A DNA stretch of 64,000 bases from Winogradskyella endarachnes (GTDB taxonomy: Bacteria > Bacteroidota > Bacteroidia > Flavobacteriales > Flavobacteriaceae), in the NCBI RefSeq assembly GCF_009741275.1, contig NZ_WOWS01000002.1, positions 310,001 to 374,000 on the forward strand, read 5' to 3'. This document shows positions 17,835 to 27,714 of this stretch, piece by piece (position 1 is the stretch's first letter; every line of letters starts with the position of its first letter). Under the pieces are notes generated by a model, which worked only from the letters and a program-made list of their open reading frames with translations, did not search any database and was not told the DNA's origin. Both the position numbers and the translations under genes were made by a program.

Positions 17835-17907
<73 letters not shown>

Positions 17908-17919
17908 CTAAATTAAGAG

Positions 17920-18053: not shown

Positions 18054-19058
18054 ATGAAGAACTTTATTGAAAAATGGAAAGTTATACTTATTATAAACCT
18101 ATTTGTTGTACTCCTTTTATTAATAGTTTGTCTTAGACAATATATTGGTATCAACAGATTCTTTATATTATCTTTCTTAGGTTTTTTTGTACCTTTTTTT
18201 GTGTATGCCAATATCTTATTTGTACTGTATTGGGCTTTAAAGAGAAAAATTCAGTTTCTCATATCTTTAAGTATACTTGTTTTTGGTTATTTTATGAATG
18301 ATTCGTTTATAAAATTTAATGATTCAAATAGTAATGCTTTTGCAGATTTTAGTGTAATGTCATTTAACGCACATGGATTTGCTGGTTTCTTTAAAATAGA
18401 TAATCCAAACGTGAAAGAGGATATAGTTGAATATGTTTTAAGAGAAAATCCAGATATTGTATGTTTTCAAGAGTATAATATTGAAGTTAGTAGTATGTTT
18501 AAGGAATATCCATATAAATATATCACTCCAGATTCTGTTGATGCTACACCACAAGCAATTCTTTCTAAGTATCCTATAGTATCTCACGGTGCTTTTGATT
18601 TTAAAAATACAATAAACAATGCCATTTATGCAGATGTTAAAATAAAGCAAGATACAGTTAGAGTTTATAACATTCACTTAGAATCTTTTAGAGTGAGGCC
18701 TGGTTCATTAAAGCGTGAAGTACCAACAAACATTTTTAATAGAATGAGTTCAGCTTTTCAGAAACAGTTAGAGCAAGCACGATTGGTAAAAAAACATAGT
18801 TTATCAGTGAAGTATAAAACCTTAATATGTGGTGATTTTAATAGTACACAATATTCAAATGTTTATAGAATTTTAAAAGGGGATTTAAAAGATAGTTTTT
18901 TAGAAAAAGGTGTAGGTTTTGGCAATACGTTTGATTTTAGAATATTACCGTTTAGAATAGATATGATACTGACCGATTTAGAAATTGTGTCACATAAAAA
19001 TTACAACATTGAATATTCTGATCATGAACCAATAAAAGCATCGTTTCGTGTTAAATAG
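18054..19058 (+). CDS. Membrane-anchored endonuclease/exonuclease/phosphatase-family protein
   Basis: The 334-residue protein has three N-terminal membrane helices (about residues 9-28, 33-55 and 60-80) and then an EEP (DNase I-like) domain. Family motifs are visible: SVMSFNAHGF, ENPDIVCFQEYN with the catalytic Glu, VYNIHLES, ICGDFNSTQYS and the C-terminal YSDHEPI containing the Asp-His pair. Such proteins may be nucleases or phosphoesterases; the substrate cannot be assigned. It has its own promoter and is followed by a 311-base gap. Confidence 0.85.
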   Translation: MKNFIEKWKVILIINLFVVLLLLIVCLRQYIGINRFFILSFLGFFVPFFVYANILFVLYWALKRKIQFLISLSILVFGYFMNDSFIKFNDSNSNAFADFSVMSFNAHGFAGFFKIDNPNVKEDIVEYVLRENPDIVCFQEYNIEVSSMFKEYPYKYITPDSVDATPQAILSKYPIVSHGAFDFKNTINNAIYADVKIKQDTVRVYNIHLESFRVRPGSLKREVPTNIFNRMSSAFQKQLEQARLVKKHSLSVKYKTLICGDFNSTQYSNVYRILKGDLKDSFLEKGVGFGNTFDFRILPFRIDMILTDLEIVSHKNYNIEYSDHEPIKASFRVK

Positions 19059-19369: not shown

Positions 19370-19603
19370 ATGGATATAGGTAATAAAGTTAGGGAGATTA
19401 TTGCAGAGTCTATAGAAGTAGAAATATCAAAAATAGAAGAAGATACAGCTATAGGTGATTTTCCTAAATGGGATTCCATGGGGCAAATAATTATAATTTC
19501 CGCTTTAGAAAAAGAGTTCGATTTTAAATTTGACCCAGAGGTAATTATGGATTTAGAAGATGTAGGAGATATGATTGAGGCTGTAGAAGAGCATGTTGCA
19601 TAA
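19370..19603 (+). CDS. Acyl carrier protein (first of two in the locus)
   Basis: This 77-residue acidic protein has the four-helix ACP pattern and the phosphopantetheine site KWDSMGQ, with Ser36 as attachment residue. It carries DSM instead of the DSL seen in primary fatty-acid ACP, a hallmark of specialised carriers. It is followed 11 bases later by an adenylate-forming ligase, which is the obvious candidate to load it. It opens the accessory locus 19.4-27.7 kb. Confidence 0.9.
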   Translation: MDIGNKVREIIAESIEVEISKIEEDTAIGDFPKWDSMGQIIIISALEKEFDFKFDPEVIMDLEDVGDMIEAVEEHVA

Positions 19604-19614
19604 TAATCACAGTT

Positions 19615-21066
19615 ATGGAGTTTGTATCACTTGAAGAGAAAATATTTGATTTTTCAATTCAAACACCTAATAAAACTGCAATAGTTGAAAAGAAAAATAC
19701 TGTTACATATCAGGAACTTTACCAACATATTTGGTCAACCAAGTGCTTTTTAGAGAAAACTTATAACTTACAGAAAGGTGATACTGTTGTAATTGCCGCA
19801 AGTAAAAATTTAAATTTTATCTATGCTTATTTTGCTTTTCATCTTATAGGAGTGAAAGTTGTTCCTTTAGATGAACAAATTCAACAGGAGAGATTAGTAT
19901 ATATTATCCAAAAAACCAACCCTAAATTAGTTATTGGATTAAATATTGAAGAAGAAATAGTTTGTATTGATTTTGATGTGTTAAAAGAGATAGAACAGGT
20001 TCTTGTTCCTAATCAAATTGAATTTCCTGAAGAATGCCAAGAAGCAGATGTTTTGTTTACTACTGGTACAACGGGAGATCCAAAAGGTGTAGTCTTAACT
20101 CACGGAAATCTTGCAGCTAGTGCACATAATATTAATACATTTATCCAAAATGATAGTAAGGATGTAGAGCTTTTAGCTTTACCAATTAGCCATTCATTTG
20201 GTTTAGGTAGAATTAAATGTGTATTGATCACAGGCGGAACATTGGTATTGTTAGGTAGTGTTGTTAATATGAAGCGTTTGTTTAGAACGTTTAAAGAACA
20301 AAATATCACAGGATTTGGTATGGTGCCAGCTAGTTGGCAGTATATTCAAAAAATGAGTGGTAATAAATTAAAAGATTATGCTGATAACCTTAATTATATA
20401 GAGTTAGGAAGCGCATATATGTCTCCAGAAGACAAGGAAGAACTTATTAAATTATTTCCTAATACTAGGATTTGTATGCATTACGGACTTACCGAAGCTT
20501 CGAGATCTACTTTTATGGAATTTCATACAGATTGTAACTATTTAAATACAATTGGTAAAGCAACTCCAAATGTTGAAATTAGTATAAAAGATAATCAAGG
20601 CCATACTGTTAGTGCAGGAGAAGAGGGTGAAATTTGCGTAAAAGGACAGCATGTAACTGCGGGTTATTTTACGGATTCTAATAGCGGCTTTTTTTACGGC
20701 GATTATTTTAGAACAGGAGATATTGGAAGTGTAGATAATAATGGTTACGTATATTTAAAAGGACGTTATAAAGAGATTATAAATGTTGGAGGTAAGAAAT
20801 TATCGCCTATTGAAGTAGAATCTAAAATTAATGAATTCGATTCTTCATTAGAGTCTGTTTGTATTGGTGTTAAAGATCCCGATGGAATTTTGGGTGAAGT
20901 AGTTAAAGCATTTATTGTAAAAAATAACACTACTCATAATTTTGAATCTATAAATGAGTTTTTAAAATCGAAGTTAGAATCCTATAAAGTACCAGTTTTA
21001 TATGAATGGATTGACGAAATTCCGAGAACGAAATCTGGAAAAATACAACGACAAAAATTAAAATAA
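19615..21066 (+). CDS. AMP-dependent acyl synthetase/ligase
   Basis: The 483-residue enzyme belongs to the class I adenylate-forming superfamily: it activates a carboxylic acid with ATP and passes the acyl group to CoA or a carrier protein. The P-loop motif TTGTTGDPKGVVLTHGN, the A5-like MHYGLTEASRSTF, the A7-like FRTGDIGSVDNNGY, the A8 hinge GRYKEIINVGGKKLSPIEVE and the C-terminal catalytic Lys in PRTKSGKIQRQKL are all present, so it should be active. Being shorter than typical acyl-CoA ligases and right after an ACP gene, it is probably an acyl-ACP ligase (inference). The alcohol dehydrogenase follows after 3 bases. Confidence 0.9.
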   Translation: MEFVSLEEKIFDFSIQTPNKTAIVEKKNTVTYQELYQHIWSTKCFLEKTYNLQKGDTVVIAASKNLNFIYAYFAFHLIGVKVVPLDEQIQQERLVYIIQKTNPKLVIGLNIEEEIVCIDFDVLKEIEQVLVPNQIEFPEECQEADVLFTTGTTGDPKGVVLTHGNLAASAHNINTFIQNDSKDVELLALPISHSFGLGRIKCVLITGGTLVLLGSVVNMKRLFRTFKEQNITGFGMVPASWQYIQKMSGNKLKDYADNLNYIELGSAYMSPEDKEELIKLFPNTRICMHYGLTEASRSTFMEFHTDCNYLNTIGKATPNVEISIKDNQGHTVSAGEEGEICVKGQHVTAGYFTDSNSGFFYGDYFRTGDIGSVDNNGYVYLKGRYKEIINVGGKKLSPIEVESKINEFDSSLESVCIGVKDPDGILGEVVKAFIVKNNTTHNFESINEFLKSKLESYKVPVLYEWIDEIPRTKSGKIQRQKLK

Positions 21067-21069
21067 ATT

Positions 21070-22206
21070 ATGTGGGAGCCTCAAGGGATTTATTCCAAAT
21101 TTTTATTAAAACAACCTACAATTCTTTTTGGAGACAATGCTATTATGGGACTTAAAACCTATGCTAGCTCTAGGGTTGTTGTAATTCATGGGTCTAGTTT
21201 AAGTGACGATTATAAGCAGAGCGTCCTTAAAGCTATGTCTGCCTTTGAAGTATCTTTTATAAAAAAAACCTGGGAAGGAGAACCTACTTTAGCAACTTTA
21301 AATCCAACGATAAAAAAGGTTGAAGATTGTAAACCAGATTTAATAATTGCTATTGGTGGAGGAAGTGTTATTGATGGTGCAAAAATGGTAAGAACGTATT
21401 ACGAGTTTCCTTTTTTTAATGTTAATGAAACAAGTTTTTCAATGCTTAACTGGAAAACCACACTTGTTGCTATACCAACAACAATTGGTAGTGGTGCAGA
21501 AATTTCTTCGGCGTCAGTGATGTATAATGACAAGGAAAAGACTAAAGAATTTGTAGTGAGTCATCAATTTATACCAGAAATTATAGTTTTAGAAGCAAGT
21601 TTAATTAAAAATGCACCTAAAAAAATATTACTATCTTCAATGGTAGATGCCTTGTCTCATGCTGTTGAAGGGTATATGTCTAAAATAGATAATTTATTGG
21701 TAGATAGCTACGCAGAAAAAGCAATTCAAATTATATCACAATATCATGAGGTTATCAGTAAAGACATTGATGAGCATTATTTAAATAAGCTTCAGTTAGC
21801 ATCACTCTTTGCAGGATTGGTTCAAAACCATTGTATTGTAGGTGCAACTCATGCATTAGCGCACCAAATGTCTGCTTTTGGATTGTCGCACTCAAACGCT
21901 ATAGCACTATTTTTACCTTCAGTGATTAAGAGAAATATTAAAGATACAAACGCCAATAAAAGATTTAATCAACTAGCAAAACATTCTGGTTTTAGTGATG
22001 GAAAAGAACTATTAAATTTTATTGAAACATTTATTAAAGGTTTTGATCTTTCAGAAGAATTAAATGTATTAAAGGAACATAAGGAAGAAATTTTGGCCAA
22101 TGATGCATTCTTTCAGCAGGCCTTAAATGATAAAGGCGGACAAGGTAACCCAGTTGCTATGGACAAAGAATTTTTAAAGGATATTTTTAAAGAAGCGTCT
22201 CTATGA
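21070..22206 (+). CDS. Iron-containing alcohol dehydrogenase
   Basis: This 378-residue protein is a group III metal-dependent dehydrogenase that interconverts aldehydes and alcohols with NAD(P)H. The nucleotide-binding motif IAIGGGSVIDGAKM, the TTIGSGAEIS loop, the metal-ligand region DALSHAVEGYMS and the second metal motif GATHALAHQM with following HSNAIALFLP are visible. The next gene, encoding a LuxE-LuxC fusion, overlaps its end by 4 bases (ATGA), so the two are translationally coupled. Position suggests it reduces, or re-oxidises, the aldehyde made by the LuxC domain. Confidence 0.9.
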   Translation: MWEPQGIYSKFLLKQPTILFGDNAIMGLKTYASSRVVVIHGSSLSDDYKQSVLKAMSAFEVSFIKKTWEGEPTLATLNPTIKKVEDCKPDLIIAIGGGSVIDGAKMVRTYYEFPFFNVNETSFSMLNWKTTLVAIPTTIGSGAEISSASVMYNDKEKTKEFVVSHQFIPEIIVLEASLIKNAPKKILLSSMVDALSHAVEGYMSKIDNLLVDSYAEKAIQIISQYHEVISKDIDEHYLNKLQLASLFAGLVQNHCIVGATHALAHQMSAFGLSHSNAIALFLPSVIKRNIKDTNANKRFNQLAKHSGFSDGKELLNFIETFIKGFDLSEELNVLKEHKEEILANDAFFQQALNDKGGQGNPVAMDKEFLKDIFKEASL

Positions 22207-24686
22207 AAACTAAAACTCTTACAGATAACCTCATTAATACTAGTCCTTATGAATTAGATAAAGGACATAAAAAACAACTGTTTTTAGAGGCATTATTAGA
22301 CGAGATTAAATTCCATTATAACAATAACGAACAGTACAAACGTTTTTGTAACAACAAAGATTTTAATCCGCATAATTTTGTAGGAGACTTAGATCAAATT
22401 CCTCCAATCGCAGTAAGTGTGTTTAAAGACTTAGGAAAGGAGTTAAAGTCTATTCCAGATAATGAAGTTAAATTATCCTTGCAATCATCAGCAACTTCAG
22501 GCATACCAAGTACTGTAGTATTAGATAAAATTACGGCAAAACGTCAAGGCAAGGTGATGGTTAAGGTAATAAAAGATTTTATTGGTGCAGAAAGAAAGCC
22601 TTTTATCGTTGTAGATGTAAGCCCAAAACCAGAAAATATTAAATTTTTAGGAGCCAGATATGCTGCAATTGGTGGTTATTTAAATTTTGCTAGTGAGGTG
22701 AATTATGCCTTAGATACAAAATCTGATAACAGTGTAGCTTTTAATGTAGATAAAACTAAAACCTTTATTGAGAAATTAGATAAAGAAACGCCAATTGTTG
22801 TATTTGGTTTTACGTATATGTTATATGCGCAAGTTGTAAAACCATTATTAGATAAGGGAATTACTTTTAATTTGCCACAAGGATCTAAAATTATTCATAT
22901 TGGAGGTTGGAAAAAATTAGAAAGTGAAAAAATTGGTAAAGACCAATTTAATGAAGCCATGTCTCAATTGTTTGCAGTAAAAAAGGAACATGTTATAGAT
23001 ATTTACGGTTTTACGGAGCAGATGGGATTAAATTATCCAGATTGCGAATGTGGTTGGAAACATACACCTGTTTACTCTGAAGTAATTGTAAGAAACCCAG
23101 AAACAAGAGAGGTTATGCCTCAAGGAGAAGAAGGTGTTTTAGAATTTTTATCTCCAATTCCGCATTCTTATCCTGGTAATGTTGTTTTAACTGATGATAT
23201 GGGAGTTGTAAATCCAGAACCTTGCCCAAATGGAAGAAACGGAACCCGATTTAAAATCTTAGGTCGATTAAAAAAGGCAGAAGTTAGAGGTTGCGGAGAT
23301 ATTTTAGGAAGTAAATTAAAGTTTTCTGGTGATACCGAAGGACAAGAAGAGTCAATAAAATCAGATTTAGAACTTCATTACTGGAAAGGACAGCGCATTG
23401 ATGCTACGCAATCAGCAGAAATACAATTAACAAAAATTATAACCAACTTAAATTCTAAGAAAGAATGGTTAAGAAATCAACCAATTGATGCTTTAATTGG
23501 CTTAATAGGTGAGGCTTCTAAAGTATGGATGATGGCCGAAGGTGATTTAAGTACCATGAAAGAAAAAGGGTTGTCGTTTTTAGCTAATTGGGCTAAACCG
23601 ATTCATCTTAATAGAATTGCCACAATTGGTCTTAGAAATAATAGACAACATATTGATGGATTTATTCCATTAAATGAATCACGTAAGCAGTTTTTAAAAG
23701 CCAATCAAAAAGGCTTAGTTTGTCATTGGTTAGCTGGTAATGTTCAAGTTTTAGGAATGTTTGCTTTATTACAATCTATAATGACTAAGAATGTAAATCT
23801 TTTAAAAATATCATCTAAAGATGGAGGCGTTTTTGCAGGGTTGTTAAAAACGTTTGAAGGCTTAAGCTACACCACAAAAGGAGGATACACTATAAAAGGT
23901 GATGATTTATTAGAAACAATAGCCGTTGTTTATTTTTCTCATAAAGATAGACAAATAGGTGAATTAATGTCTAAGTCTGCTAATGTTCGTATAGCTTGGG
24001 GAGGAAGAGAAGCCGTAGAAACAGTAGCTAACTATCCGTCTATGTATGATACAGAAGATATTATATTTGGTCCTAAAATTTCCTTTTCAGTTATTTCACA
24101 AGAAGTTTTAAGTACCGAAAGAAAAGCAAAAAAAATAGCAAGAAAAGTTGCAGTAGATTCTAGTGTGTTTGATCAAACAGGTTGTGCTTCTCCACATAAT
24201 TTATATATAGAAAAAGGAGGAGTGATATCTCCAAGAGTTTTTTGTGAGTTGCTAGCACAAGGCATGGAAAAAACTGCCGTCCAAATTCCTAAAGGAGAAA
24301 CGTCGGTAGAGCAGATATCCGCTATTCACTCTGTAAGGGGATTATATGATTTTAAAGGCGAAGTTTGGGCTAGTGAGGATACTACATGGACGGTTGTATA
24401 TGCAGAAGATAAGAATTTAAAAGCTCCTGTATATTCAAGAGTGATTATGGTTCACCCTGTAGACCACATAGATGAAACTCTAGAACATATTGATGATAAT
24501 ATACAAACTATTGGTTTAGCAGCAATAGGAGAAAAAGCATTGAATTTTGCAGAAAAAGCAGTAGATAAAGGTGTTATGAGATGTCCGGAAATGGGTAGAA
24601 TGTTAAATTTTGAATCACCTTGGGACGGTATCTTTTTAATGGAAAGAATGGTAAGATGGAGTACTTTTGGAGGACCATTAATTTAA
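22203..24686 (+). CDS. LuxE-LuxC fusion: acyl-protein synthetase and acyl-CoA/acyl-thioester reductase
   Basis: One 827-residue polypeptide joins two enzymes that are separate in bioluminescent bacteria. Residues 1 to about 375 match LuxE acyl-protein synthetase: the ATP-binding LQSSATSGIPS, IDIYGFTEQMGLNYPDC, and Cys364 in VRGCGDILGS, which corresponds to the acyl-accepting Cys described for Vibrio LuxE. About residues 400-827 match LuxC fatty-acyl reductase: CHWLAGNVQVLGMFALLQ, VRIAWGGREAVE, and the nucleophile Cys661 in FDQTGCASPHN. In the family LuxE activates an acid and hands the acyl group to LuxC, which makes the aldehyde with NADPH. No luxA, luxB or luxD is nearby. A 128-base gap separates it from the KAS III gene. 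Confidence 0.88.
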   Translation: MKTKTLTDNLINTSPYELDKGHKKQLFLEALLDEIKFHYNNNEQYKRFCNNKDFNPHNFVGDLDQIPPIAVSVFKDLGKELKSIPDNEVKLSLQSSATSGIPSTVVLDKITAKRQGKVMVKVIKDFIGAERKPFIVVDVSPKPENIKFLGARYAAIGGYLNFASEVNYALDTKSDNSVAFNVDKTKTFIEKLDKETPIVVFGFTYMLYAQVVKPLLDKGITFNLPQGSKIIHIGGWKKLESEKIGKDQFNEAMSQLFAVKKEHVIDIYGFTEQMGLNYPDCECGWKHTPVYSEVIVRNPETREVMPQGEEGVLEFLSPIPHSYPGNVVLTDDMGVVNPEPCPNGRNGTRFKILGRLKKAEVRGCGDILGSKLKFSGDTEGQEESIKSDLELHYWKGQRIDATQSAEIQLTKIITNLNSKKEWLRNQPIDALIGLIGEASKVWMMAEGDLSTMKEKGLSFLANWAKPIHLNRIATIGLRNNRQHIDGFIPLNESRKQFLKANQKGLVCHWLAGNVQVLGMFALLQSIMTKNVNLLKISSKDGGVFAGLLKTFEGLSYTTKGGYTIKGDDLLETIAVVYFSHKDRQIGELMSKSANVRIAWGGREAVETVANYPSMYDTEDIIFGPKISFSVISQEVLSTERKAKKIARKVAVDSSVFDQTGCASPHNLYIEKGGVISPRVFCELLAQGMEKTAVQIPKGETSVEQISAIHSVRGLYDFKGEVWASEDTTWTVVYAEDKNLKAPVYSRVIMVHPVDHIDETLEHIDDNIQTIGLAAIGEKALNFAEKAVDKGVMRCPEMGRMLNFESPWDGIFLMERMVRWSTFGGPLI

Positions 24687-24814
24687 TCAAAAATAATTAT
24701 TAAATAACAAGGGTGGAATTTTAAATTTTTATATCTTCATGTAGTCAATATGTTAAATATTTGAGTGGTTGCATTTAAGTTGAAAGGGGAGTAATTTGAA
24801 TAATAAAACACACA

Positions 24815-25885
24815 ATGAATTTAAAATTTAGGAATAAAAAAATAACAGGAATACTAAGTGTGGTTCCTGAGAATGAAATTAAGTTTGATGATGAATTAGA
24901 AAATTATGCCTTTTCTAAAAGTCAATCTATGAAACTAAAACTCATTATGGGTTACAACAAAAGAAGAGTTGTTAGTAAAGAAACTACAGTTTCAGATTTG
25001 TGCATCCATGGTTTGCAATACCTTTTTGATACCAATAAATTAAATAAAGATGATATTGATGGGATTGTTTTAGTATCACAATCACCAGATTATTTTATTC
25101 CATCAACAAGTCATGTAATTCAGGGAAAATTAGGCTTAAAATCTGATATGGTATGTTTAGATATTAGTCAGGCATGTTCTGGTTATGCTATTGGCTTGTC
25201 ACAAGCATTTATGCTATTGGATCAAGAGGATATTAATAAAGTTGTAGTTTTAAATGGAGATACATATAGTCAAAAAGTTTCTGTTCAAGACAGAGGTAGT
25301 GGTCCAATAACTGGTGATGCTGTAGGAATAACTATTGTAGAAAAGAGCAATGAAGATAATATAATTTATGGCTCAATAAATACCGATGGTTCTGGTTCAG
25401 ATGCGCTTATAATTCCGGCAGGTGGATTTAGAACACCATCTACTCCTGAGACGTCAGTGTTAGTGCAAGACAATAAGGGTAATACAAGGTCATTAGATCA
25501 TTTAGTAATGAAAGGTGATGATGTGTTTAATTTTGTTCAAAGAGAAGTGCCACCAATGATAAATAAACTTCTAGAAAGGGCTAAAGTAAATAAAGATGAT
25601 GTAGATTATTTTATGTTTCATCAACCTAATAAATTTATGCTAAAAAAATTAGCCGATAAAATGGATGTGACTTACGATAAGATGCCTAATAATATTGTTG
25701 AGAATTTTGGAAACTCAAACAGTGCAACAATACCATTAAATATTAGTTTTAACCTAGGAGATAAAATATTAAGAAACTCGTATTTTCTATGCTTAGCTGG
25801 TTTTGGAGCCGGTTTAAGTTGGTCGTCTTTATTACTTGAAGTAGGGCATTTAGATTTTTGCGAAATAATAAATTATAATAATTAA
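24815..25885 (+). CDS. 3-oxoacyl-ACP synthase III family (KAS III / FabH-like)
   Basis: This 356-residue condensing enzyme of the KAS III type has an intact catalytic triad: Cys121 in DISQACSGYAIG, His269 in FMFHQPNKF and Asn300 in NFGNSNSATIPL. KAS III enzymes extend an acyl-CoA with malonyl-ACP, and some relatives instead esterify or transfer acyl groups. The sequence is diverged from housekeeping FabH (long N-terminal region, MGYNKRRVV) and sits two bases ahead of a second ACP gene. It probably serves the special pathway rather than bulk fatty acid synthesis. Confidence 0.9.
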   Translation: MNLKFRNKKITGILSVVPENEIKFDDELENYAFSKSQSMKLKLIMGYNKRRVVSKETTVSDLCIHGLQYLFDTNKLNKDDIDGIVLVSQSPDYFIPSTSHVIQGKLGLKSDMVCLDISQACSGYAIGLSQAFMLLDQEDINKVVVLNGDTYSQKVSVQDRGSGPITGDAVGITIVEKSNEDNIIYGSINTDGSGSDALIIPAGGFRTPSTPETSVLVQDNKGNTRSLDHLVMKGDDVFNFVQREVPPMINKLLERAKVNKDDVDYFMFHQPNKFMLKKLADKMDVTYDKMPNNIVENFGNSNSATIPLNISFNLGDKILRNSYFLCLAGFGAGLSWSSLLLEVGHLDFCEIINYNN

Positions 25886-25887
25886 AT

Positions 25888-26103
25888 ATGGAAGATTTTA
25901 TACCTTCTTTAGCAGAACTTTTAGAGGAGGAATCAGTTGAGCTTACTGATGCATTAGATTCATTTGAAGCATGGGATTCATTAACAATTTTGTCAATGAT
26001 TGCTTTTTTTGATTCGGAGTATAATGTTCAATTGTCTGCTGAAGAAATTGAAAATTCAGAAACAGTACAAGGCATTAAAGACCTTGTAGAAAGTAAAATG
26101 TAA
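25888..26103 (+). CDS. Acyl carrier protein (second of two in the locus)
   Basis: This 71-residue ACP-like protein has the phosphopantetheine site AWDSLTI with Ser31. It starts 2 bases after the KAS III stop codon, so the two are coupled. It differs markedly from the first ACP of the locus (DSL versus DSM, and little identity outside the site), suggesting that the two carriers serve different enzymes. Confidence 0.88.
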   Translation: MEDFIPSLAELLEEESVELTDALDSFEAWDSLTILSMIAFFDSEYNVQLSAEEIENSETVQGIKDLVESKM

Positions 26104-26174
26104 TAGGTTTTTATAATCTAGCTATTAATTAAATAATAAGTTTTTAAGGGGAACTTATAAAAAAAACATAAAGT

Positions 26175-26840
26175 ATGAGAAATGTAATAATTTTAGGAAC
26201 AGGAGGATGCGCAGCCGAACTCACATTCTTAATTGAAGATAATAATGCTAAATTACCAGCAGATCATTGGATCAATATTTTGGGATATATTGATTATGCT
26301 GATCATTTAAAAGATAACTATGATAAGTATGATTTTGAAGCTCCTGTCCTTTGTGATATAGATAGTTACCAACCAAAGCCAGACGAAGAAGTCCTAATCG
26401 GAGTTATGGATATTGCTTTTAAAGGTAAAATGATTAAAGCACTAAAAGAGAAGAATGCCAAAATTGGTAGTTTTTTTCATCACTCAGTTGTTATGCCTCC
26501 AAATTTAAATATAGGTGAAGGCAACATTGTTTTTCCGTTCTGTATTATAGAAAAATATGCTACCGTAGGTAATTACAATCTTCTTATTTCATATAGCTTT
26601 ATTGCCCACGACTGTGTGGTAGGAGATAATAACTTTCTCTCTGGTGCAGGTATTGCAGGATCTGTAAAAGTTGGTAATAATAATTATTTCGGACTTAGAT
26701 CAACAGTAGTGCCAGGTGTAACTATAGGAAACGGAAATACTATACAAGCCGGAATGTTAGTAGATAAAAATGTAAAAGACGATACTACGGTGTTTTACAG
26801 GTTTAAAGAGAAAGTTATGGCAATACCAAAGCCAAATTAA
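26175..26840 (+). CDS. NeuD-family sugar O/N-acyltransferase-like protein
   Basis: The 221-residue protein has the two-part NeuD/PglD layout: an N-terminal Rossmann-like segment (NVIILGTGGCAAELTFLIED) and a C-terminal left-handed beta helix of hexapeptide repeats (residues about 105-200, for example VGDNNFLSGAGIAGSVKVG). The catalytic His of the family is likely in SYSFIAHDCVVGD. These enzymes acetylate or acylate amino sugars using CoA or ACP donors. Its position 71 bases after an ACP suggests that it may use an acyl-ACP, but no sugar-nucleotide enzymes or glycosyltransferases are in the window. Confidence 0.82.
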   Translation: MRNVIILGTGGCAAELTFLIEDNNAKLPADHWINILGYIDYADHLKDNYDKYDFEAPVLCDIDSYQPKPDEEVLIGVMDIAFKGKMIKALKEKNAKIGSFFHHSVVMPPNLNIGEGNIVFPFCIIEKYATVGNYNLLISYSFIAHDCVVGDNNFLSGAGIAGSVKVGNNNYFGLRSTVVPGVTIGNGNTIQAGMLVDKNVKDDTTVFYRFKEKVMAIPKPN

Positions 26841-26940
26841 GCTCATCTTCTTTTTTAATAAATTCAATATTTACTCAATGGAGTTATGCATACATATGCA
26901 CATTGGTAATGGGTATTGCAAATTTTTATAATTTTAAAAA

Positions 26941-27714
26941 ATGGTTTTAAATAATAATATTAAACACAGTGTAGTTCGTTGGCCTTATGGAAGAATGGGG
27001 ATGGAAGAATTTTTAAAATCTTTAAACGAAATTGGCGTTACCGCAATTGAGTTAGTAGAACCAGAAGATTATCCGTTATTAAAAAAGTATAACATTCATT
27101 GTGCAATGTGTCAAGGTGCAGAAATCAGTTTTTCAGAAGGATGGAACAATCCTAAATACCATGATGAGTTAATTAAGCGATATTCTGAAATGATACCTCA
27201 TATTGCAGAAGCTGGTTATACAAACCTTATTTGTTTTAGTGGAAGTAGAGCAGAAATAAGTGATGAAGAAGGATTAAAAAATTGTGTGGTAGGATTAAAT
27301 AAAATATTACCTATAGCAAAAGAGCACAATGTGGTTTTACACATGGAATTATTAAACAGCAGAACCGCACCGCATAAAGATTACATGTGCGATAACACAA
27401 AATTTGGTGTAGAATTATGCCAACAATTGGATTCAGATAACTTTAAATTATTATATGATATCTATCACATGCAAGTTATGGAAGGTGATATTATTAAAAC
27501 AATTAGAGTCAACCATCAGTATTTTGGGCATTATCATACAGCTGGGAATCCTGGTCGTGGTCCTTTAGATGACACTCAAGAATTAAATTATCCTGCTATT
27601 ATGAAAGCTATCGTAAAAACCGGATTTACGGGTTACGTAGGACAAGAGTTTATGCCAAAAGGGAAAAATAAAATTGAAGCTTTACAAACAGGTATTAAAA
27701 TTTGTGATGTTTAG
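26941..27714 (+). CDS. Hydroxypyruvate isomerase-like TIM-barrel protein
   Basis: The 257-residue protein belongs to the AP-endonuclease 2 TIM-barrel family (xylose isomerase-like), closest in motifs to hydroxypyruvate isomerase (Hyi). Metal ligands are apparent: Glu in VVLHMELLNS, Asp in LLYDIYHMQ, the HYHTAGNPGRGPLDD stretch, and Glu in GYVGQEFMP. Hyi interconverts hydroxypyruvate and tartronate semialdehyde; related proteins act on other ketose or keto-acid substrates. It follows the NeuD-like gene by 100 bases in the same direction. Whether it belongs to the acyl locus is uncertain. Confidence 0.8.
   Translation: MVLNNNIKHSVVRWPYGRMGMEEFLKSLNEIGVTAIELVEPEDYPLLKKYNIHCAMCQGAEISFSEGWNNPKYHDELIKRYSEMIPHIAEAGYTNLICFSGSRAEISDEEGLKNCVVGLNKILPIAKEHNVVLHMELLNSRTAPHKDYMCDNTKFGVELCQQLDSDNFKLLYDIYHMQVMEGDIIKTIRVNHQYFGHYHTAGNPGRGPLDDTQELNYPAIMKAIVKTGFTGYVGQEFMPKGKNKIEALQTGIKICDV

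What the first reader, a model, noticed from the sequence alone, without database searches (positions are those of the whole stretch)
19370..27714. Uncharacterised acyl activation, condensation and reduction locus (two ACPs, ligase, Fe-ADH, LuxE-LuxC, KAS III, NeuD-like)
The sequence shows eight same-strand genes. The first four are tightly coupled (gaps of 11 and 3 bases, then a 4-base overlap), and the KAS III and second ACP genes are 2 bases apart. Family knowledge gives a workable flow: a ligase loads an acid on ACP1, KAS III extends it on ACP2, LuxE-LuxC makes an aldehyde, the Fe-dehydrogenase makes an alcohol, and a NeuD-like enzyme could transfer an acyl group to a sugar amine. No luciferase, glycosyltransferase or polyketide genes are present, so the product (special acyl sugar, fatty aldehyde/alcohol or lipid) is unknown. 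The combination is not one I recognise as a described pathway.
Basis: partly seen in the sequence, partly recalled or inferred. Interest (0 to 1): 0.82.

Follow-up and report, generated by a model that had tools for sequence, protein, structure and literature searches.

The report
Mix-and-match sugar acyl-group assembly operon
A marine flavobacterium carries a small operon that probably builds an unusual short acid, lengthens it and hangs it on a surface sugar; its front half matches the cholera-type "tetronate" genes, and relatives swap that half for other acid-loading genes, which suggests a modular way of diversifying bacterial surfaces.

The parts
19370..19603 (+). ACP1, acyl carrier protein (77 aa), first gene of the RfbKLMN-like front
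   Evidence: PF00550 E 8e-8; tblastn hit just upstream of the ligase in 22 of 24 module loci
19615..21066 (+). AMP-forming acid ligase (483 aa), RfbL/WbeL-like by position; predicted to load the acid on ACP1
   Evidence: PF00501 + PF13193; order kept in relatives
21070..22206 (+). Fe-containing alcohol dehydrogenase (378 aa), position of VC0250; predicted aldehyde to alcohol
   Evidence: PF00465/PF25137; order kept in relatives; fused to LuxE in a Lokiarchaeota locus
22203..24686 (+). Fused LuxE-LuxC (827 aa), RfbN-like: acid activation as acyl-enzyme and reduction to aldehyde
   Evidence: PF04443 E 7e-118 and PF05893 E 5e-81; Cys364 invariant in the 6 rows of alignment A2 (role as acyl site recalled); PDB 7xc6 LuxE/LuxC are the solved relatives
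24815..25885 (+). KAS III (356 aa), first gene of the KAS III-ACP2-NeuD cassette
   Evidence: PF08541/PF08545; Cys121, His269, Asn300 kept in 14 of 14 aligned copies
25888..26103 (+). ACP2 (71 aa), two bases behind KAS III
   Evidence: sub-cut-off ACP hits, W-D-S-L site; follows KAS III in 14 of 14 cassettes
26175..26840 (+). NeuD/PglD/VioB-like N-acyltransferase (221 aa)
26941..27714 (+). TIM-barrel isomerase/epimerase-like protein (hydroxypyruvate-isomerase-like), without a signal-like N-terminus; role unknown
   Evidence: PF01261; same 3 of 60 genus genomes as the operon; 12 of 14 relatives looked at elsewhere start with a signal-like N-terminus
18054..19058 (+). Endonuclease/exonuclease/phosphatase-family protein that travels with the island; probably not part of the pathway
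   Evidence: PF03372; 65-68% copies only in the two other island genomes, elsewhere in the genus only matches of about 35-43%
17835..17908 (+). tRNA-Met at the edge of the variable site that holds the island in this genome
   Evidence: same tRNA and flanks with other genes between them in two relatives

Best explanation
The locus is a two-module assembly line for an unusual N-acyl group of a surface sugar. Module 1 (ACP1-ligase-Fe-ADH-LuxE/LuxC) works like RfbKLMN of V. cholerae O1: LuxE-LuxC activates and reduces one carboxyl of a small dicarboxylic acid to an aldehyde, Fe-ADH reduces that to the alcohol, and the ligase loads the other carboxyl on ACP1 (by analogy a 2,4-dihydroxybutanoyl = 3-deoxytetronyl or a 4-hydroxybutanoyl group). 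Module 2 (KAS III-ACP2-NeuD-like) takes that starter: KAS III condenses it with malonyl-ACP2, a housekeeping FabG may reduce the keto group, and the VioB/PglD-like enzyme transfers the acyl group to the amine of a nucleotide-linked amino sugar. The sugar itself is made elsewhere in the genome. Shown: gene content, conserved order, kept catalytic residues, swapping of the front before a constant module 2, predicted fold of the NeuD-like protein. Inferred: substrates, chain extension by two carbons, acceptor sugar.
For: Module 1: same order in 23 of 48 fused LuxE-LuxC loci, plus a Lokiarchaeota form with Fe-ADH fused to LuxE; V. cholerae VC0249 RfbL, VC0250 Fe-ADH, VC0251 RfbN, VC0252 acetyltransferase belong to the tetronate group; some relatives beside NeuB/NeuC/CMP-synthetase genes. 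Module 2: 14 of 14 cassettes lie directly behind an ACP-loading front, of four kinds; 14 of 14 aligned KAS III keep Cys-His-Asn; 13 of 13 NeuD-like proteins keep the His; fold match to VioB, PerB, PglD. A MaoC dehydratase and an SDR reductase sit in one cassette (L171), as expected if KAS III extends. P. syringae vioS, acp and vioB lie in the island that makes N-(3-hydroxybutanoyl)viosamine. The own genome has a NeuB/NeuC glycan cluster.
Against: No sugar-making gene or glycosyltransferase lies in this operon, nor among the few neighbours that I profiled at L138 (3) and L140 (2). No reductase for the KAS III product is in the window operon. Of the 24 loci with ligase and Fe-ADH, 17 have no KAS III within 8 kb on that strand, so module 1 usually works without it. 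Maribacter (L037) has module 1 plus KAS III but no ACP2 or NeuD in the 22-kb locus, and the best NeuD match in its genome is 26.8 bits. V. cholerae protein sequences were not reached, so the link to RfbKLMN rests on published annotation and order. The NeuD-like protein is 16-22% identical to the solved enzymes, and four of the five AF2 models were of low confidence (mean pLDDT 68-71). The KAS III/NeuD tree conflict is weak and post hoc.
Confidence: 0.55

Rival explanations
1. Two independent acyl donors: module 1 makes a tetronate-like acyl-ACP1 for a transferase encoded elsewhere, while KAS III-ACP2-NeuD is a VioS-ACP-VioB-like unit that makes 3-hydroxybutanoyl from acetyl-CoA on its own.
For: The seven-gene P. 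syringae viosamine island has VioS, ACP and VioB without an acid ligase; hexapeptide transferases occur in the own NeuB/NeuC cluster; a 128-base gap separates the two halves; module 1 mostly occurs without KAS III (17 of 24 loci).
Against: 14 of 14 cassettes have an ACP-loading front directly upstream, and in 6 of the 9 loci measured the front ACP overlaps KAS III; a self-sufficient unit would be expected to occur alone at least sometimes. My sampling kept only close KAS III relatives (E up to 1e-60 in the genus, 1e-100 in the family), so free-standing distant ones would be missed.
Confidence: 0.2
2. KAS III does not extend but moves the acyl group from ACP1 to ACP2 (an acyltransferase role known for some KAS III-like proteins, recalled), and NeuD transfers the unextended tetronyl-type group.
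For: Constant KAS III-ACP2 pairing behind different fronts fits a hand-over step too.
Against: The Cys-His-Asn triad (catalytic roles recalled) is kept in 14 of 14 aligned copies; one cassette carries SDR and MaoC genes for beta-carbon processing.
Confidence: 0.15
3. A lipid or fatty aldehyde/alcohol pathway (wax, odd fatty alcohol, light-related), the lux-like reading.
For: LuxE and LuxC act on long-chain acids in bioluminescence (recalled); the solved relatives are LuxC-LuxE; papers on flagellin islands read similar genes as fatty-acid genes.
Against: Scores are far below the NCBIfam cut-offs for true LuxE and LuxC (116 of 550, 109.5 of 750 bits); several relatives lie in sugar clusters; no luciferase among the eight genes; the NeuD-like gene fits a sugar acceptor.
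Confidence: 0.06
4. A chance juxtaposition at a variable site, with no joint function of the two modules.
For: The site holds unrelated genes in two other genomes; the island is in only 3 of 60 genomes; EEP and TIM genes travel with it.
Against: The same junction (LuxE-LuxC followed by the same kind of KAS III) occurs in Maribacter, and other fronts take the same place elsewhere.
Confidence: 0.04

Closest known systems
Vibrio cholerae O1 tetronate genes rfbKLMNO/wbeKLMNO (VC0248-VC0252)
   Same: [quoted passage not shown] that rfbK/VC0248 is an ACP is recalled, not seen in a call. A tetronate role is predicted in print, and a wbeL deletion lacks O1 antigen.
   Different: Here KAS III and a second ACP follow; no perosamine or transport genes in the operon; the acyltransferase is NeuD-like.
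Pseudomonas syringae viosamine island (vioA, vioM, vioT, vioS, vioB, vioR, acp)
   Same: KAS III, ACP and a VioB acyltransferase serve an N-(3-hydroxybutanoyl) amino sugar; the NeuD-like model matches a VioB structure (from Acinetobacter) at the top of the list.
   Different: The window cassette has no vioA, vioT or vioR, and the 14 cassettes seen follow an acid-loading front.
Flagellin glycosylation islands with ACP, FabG, ligase, LuxE, LuxC (Aeromonas group II, Enterobacteriaceae)
   Same: ACP, ligase, LuxE and LuxC next to sugar genes.
   Different: A 3-oxoacyl-ACP reductase in place of Fe-ADH; LuxE and LuxC are listed as separate genes; in print they are read as fatty-acid genes for a possible liposugar.
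FkbH/ACP glyceryl-loading modules (recalled from tetronate polyketide pathways)
   Same: FkbH plus ACP stands in the place of the window's front in L169 and L171.
   Different: Not present in the window; in L169 and L171 it precedes a KAS III-ACP2-NeuD cassette.

Membership tests
RfbKLMN (V. cholerae O1 tetronate) module | Gene order ACP, AMP-ligase, Fe-ADH, LuxE-LuxC | tested here: met
   V. cholerae order for VC0249-0252, ACP VC0248 recalled
RfbKLMN (V. cholerae O1 tetronate) module | LuxE and LuxC domains in one protein | tested here: met
   827-aa ORF with both domains; [quoted passage not shown]
RfbKLMN (V. cholerae O1 tetronate) module | Sequence homology to the V. cholerae proteins themselves | not tested
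   their sequences were not reached; nearest named Vibrio relatives are Vibrio fortis 47% and Vibrio sp. 99-8-1 46%
RfbKLMN (V. cholerae O1 tetronate) module | Product is 3-deoxy-L-glycero-tetronate | not testable with these tools
   needs enzyme assay or mass spectrometry
NeuD/PglD/VioB sugar N-acyltransferases | Two-domain fold with left-handed beta helix | tested here: met
   [not shown]
NeuD/PglD/VioB sugar N-acyltransferases | Catalytic His | tested here: met
   His145 in 13 of 13 copies; its role is recalled from PglD/PerB
NeuD/PglD/VioB sugar N-acyltransferases | Score above the TIGR03570 cut-off | tested here: not met
   114.4 bits against 160.8; I therefore call it NeuD-like, not NeuD
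KAS III condensing enzymes | Cys-His-Asn triad | tested here: met
   14 of 14 aligned copies
Bioluminescence LuxE/LuxC | Score above the curated LuxE and LuxC cut-offs | tested here: not met
   116 of 550 and 109.5 of 750 bits
VioS-ACP-VioR-VioB (viosamine) set | Dedicated 3-oxoacyl reductase (VioR) | tested here: not met
   no SDR among the eight genes
VioS-ACP-VioR-VioB (viosamine) set | KAS III, ACP and VioB-like transferase together | tested here: met
   sequence homology to the P. syringae proteins themselves not tested

The most novel reading that the evidence does not exclude
Flavobacteria use an unrecognised class of modular mini assembly lines for glycan decoration: a constant KAS III-ACP2-NeuD core accepts different ACP-bound polar starters (tetronyl-type, aminoacyl, N-formyl-aminoacyl, glyceryl), extends them by two carbons like a polyketide synthase and amidates an amino sugar, so that swapping the front gene block changes the surface.
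Probability: 0.38. Interest if true: 0.78.

Novelty: new variant of a known kind. Interest (0 to 1): 0.62.

Why it matters
If true, bacterial surface sugars can carry polyketide-like acyl groups made by swappable starter modules, which links glycan diversity (phage receptors, recognition) to natural-product logic. It would also give a testable biochemical system for the tetronate-type module, whose pathway in V. cholerae was proposed from sequence in 1995 (title in a reference list), using genes of marine bacteria that are not known to me as pathogens.

Tried and rejected
Fatty aldehyde/lipid reading: disfavoured by sub-cut-off Lux scores and sugar contexts of several relatives. True Lux system: not met. 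Integration at tRNA-Met by repeat: a 20-base piece of the tRNA 3' end is not repeated in the window with up to 3 mismatches, so no integrative element is shown. A single orthologous KAS III across all LuxE-LuxC loci: not borne out, the tree shows several separate KAS III groups. TIM barrel as a core pathway gene: left open; no hit in the stretches around the 11 cassettes that have other fronts, and its family is common in Bacteroidota (93 of 395 genomes). Mirror-tree test (window plus 23 loci, L030 dropped as the same genome as L036): r 0.94, 0.83, 0.72 with 0 of 1000 permutations as high; it includes L079, where one ORF stood for both Fe-ADH and LuxE-LuxC, which inflates r, and shared descent alone can give such values, so I do not lean on it. 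Promoter and terminator scan: promoter-like sites no more than chance (42 against 48.4), 7 terminator-like sites against 3.5 expected; not used to define the operon. Plasmid search: 26 records, none covering 80% of LuxE-LuxC. Paper searches that showed no description of the swappable-front cassette: (open-licence PMC only; I saw listings, and passages only where cited).
Full report
What was checked. The eight ORFs are present at 19370-27714 on one strand, with the reported spacing. Pfam and NCBIfam support ACP, AMP-ligase, Fe-ADH, fused LuxE-LuxC, KAS III, NeuD-like and a TIM barrel; ACP2 is supported only by sub-cut-off ACP hits and its W-D-S-L site.

Where it lies. One named record places the genus: the G032 contig has the same length as an 'uncultured Winogradskyella' contig. 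Of 60 genomes of the genus sampled, 22 match LuxE-LuxC at E up to 0.001, but only 3, our own included, over the full length; the others match weakly in the LuxE half. Of 395 genomes of the phylum sampled, 5 match at E up to 1e-30, and only our own over the full length in one match. All eight genes keep their order in G032 and G057. In our genome the island lies between a tRNA-Met block and an rRNA-methylase gene. G032 shares the upstream flank and the tRNA, G057 shares the downstream flank, and neither shares both. Of six island-free stretches fetched from relatives, two (G055, G018) show both flanks, with other genes between them; in G055 four of these were profiled as regulators, a sensor kinase and a Ysc84 protein. 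The neighbouring EEP-family gene (18054-19058) has its close copies (65-68%) only in G032 and G057, although 59 of 60 genomes have some match. The TIM barrel occurs in the same 3 of 60.

Genes 1-4 are an RfbKLMN-type module. 49 of them hold an ORF over 700 aa that matches LuxE-LuxC; one of the 49 (L079, Lokiarchaeota) is in truth Fe-ADH fused to LuxE, with LuxC as the next gene, which leaves 48. In 24 of 49 a ligase and an Fe-ADH lie close on the same strand: 23 in the order ligase, Fe-ADH, LuxE-LuxC, and L079. L030 and L036 among them are the same genome. An ACP lies just upstream in 22 of 24 by tblastn (not in L075, cut by the contig end, nor in L079). In 23 of 49 a ligase is present without Fe-ADH, and 2 of 49 are incomplete. 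Of the 25 loci without Fe-ADH, 13 carry a two-part transketolase-like enzyme (named from one member). Hosts of the four-gene order include Maribacter, Carboxylicivirga, Treponema parvum, Lachnospiraceae, Vibrio fortis, Agarivorans and Marinomonas. Within 8 kb on the same strand, a NeuB-cluster gene occurs in 6 of 24 and a NeuC-cluster gene in 4 of 24 (clusters named from L038). KAS III occurs within 8 kb in 7 of 24 (L030, L031, L036, L037, L039, L048, L076) and in 13 of 25 loci without Fe-ADH, so most RfbKLMN-type loci do without it.

Published link. In V. cholerae O1, VC0248-0252 are grouped as tetronate biosynthesis, and a wbeL (VC0249) deletion lacks O1 antigen (PMC3441752, passages). [quoted passage not shown] That VC0248 (RfbK) is an ACP is recalled. 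A paper on a Riemerella luxE homologue states that V. cholerae RfbN carries a LuxE domain (PMC4772473, passages), and a V. vulnificus gene table lists RfbN beside an ACP, a NeuC homologue and a polysaccharide deacetylase (PMC11264103, passage). That L-malate reduced at C4 would give 2,4-dihydroxybutanoate of matching stereochemistry is my own inference from recall.

Genes 5-7 are a separate cassette. In the same genus, KAS III at E up to 1e-60 occurs in 5 of 60 genomes: the three with the island, G004, and twice in G029. In G004 and G029 it is followed by ACP2 and a NeuD-like gene, without LuxE-LuxC. In 397 Flavobacteriaceae genomes, KAS III at E up to 1e-100 occurs in 9 including our own; all 8 others have KAS III, ACP2 and NeuD in this order, with extra genes between ACP2 and NeuD in L167 and L172. 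The NeuD of L172 is only 39% identical. Counting window, L030, L031, L138-L140 and L165-L172, there are 14 cassettes (L139's KAS III is interrupted), and 14 of 14 have an ACP-loading front directly upstream: RfbKLMN (3), amino-acid-adenylation ligase + ACP (5: L139, L165-L168), the same with a formyltransferase (4: L138, L140, L170, L172), FkbH + ACP (2: L169, L171). The adenylation label passes the TIGR01733 cut-off in 3 of 3 ligases profiled out of 9, FkbH passes its cut-off in 2 of 2; the formyltransferase was profiled in L140 only and found by tblastn in L138, L170 and, at 32%, L172. L171 also has MaoC and SDR genes between front and KAS III. Gaps were computed for 9 of the 14 from mechanical ORF starts: the front ACP overlaps KAS III in 6 (L138, L140, L165, L166, L168, L170); in L171 the SDR lies 3 bases before KAS III; L169 has 104 and the window 128 bases. 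Maribacter L037 is an exception of another kind: RfbKLMN front plus KAS III, without ACP2 or NeuD in the locus.

Shuffling. KAS III of the Rfb-front loci groups with L165/L166, while NeuD groups with the FkbH loci L169/L171 (80 and 78% identical to the window). AU tests reject the swapped groupings only weakly (p 0.027 and 0.044; groups chosen after seeing the trees; L172 dropped as a long branch, L037 dropped from the KAS III test); the NeuD tree is poorly resolved. A wider KAS III tree shows several separate KAS III groups near LuxE-LuxC modules.

Acceptor. The operon has no sugar genes. The own genome has a NeuB/NeuC/glycosyltransferase cluster on another contig and 12 DegT-family matches, four of them strong. 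Some cassettes elsewhere lie near sugar genes: a UDP-sugar dehydrogenase in L165, L168 and L171, a 2-epimerase in L168, DegT and a glycosyltransferase in L172; L166 and L169 have GNAT/FemAB-like genes (only chosen neighbours were profiled, and none at L170).

Conclusion. The finding is real. It is not an unknown single pathway: a front of a known tetronate type is joined to a KAS III-ACP-N-acyltransferase core that elsewhere follows other fronts. I commit to starter loading, two-carbon extension and N-acylation of an amino sugar, at 0.55.

Noticed in passing
L079:8906-12379: Lokiarchaeota contig with Fe-ADH fused to LuxE (734 aa) followed by LuxC and preceded by a ligase: an archaeal form of the module.
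   Followed up: partly
L045:5364-7138 and 12 other loci without Fe-ADH: A two-part transketolase-like enzyme stands near ACP-ligase-LuxE-LuxC modules that lack Fe-ADH (named from L045); it might use the aldehyde made by LuxC.
   Followed up: no
L138, L140, L170, L172: Cassettes with an amino-acid adenylation ligase, formyltransferase and ACP in front of KAS III suggest N-formyl-aminoacyl starters.
   Followed up: partly
L169, L171: FkbH + ACP (glyceryl-loading type, recalled) in front of KAS III-ACP2-NeuD.
   Followed up: partly
window 18054-19058: EEP-family gene whose close copies occur only in the three island genomes; function unknown.
   Followed up: no
window 26941-27714: The TIM-barrel gene lacks the signal-like N-terminus seen in 12 of 14 relatives looked at; some of those sit beside GMC-like and transporter-like ORFs (judged from N-termini only).
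   Followed up: partly
L139:6839-7906: KAS III copy interrupted by a stop in one G029 cassette, while the second copy in that genome is uninterrupted.
   Followed up: no
L038, L042, L044, L071, L073, L083 downstream of LuxE-LuxC: A ~345-aa protein recurs between LuxE-LuxC and a deacetylase-like gene (cluster 18); no NCBIfam hit at 1e-15 and no Pfam hit in L038, no Pfam hit in L071.
   Followed up: no
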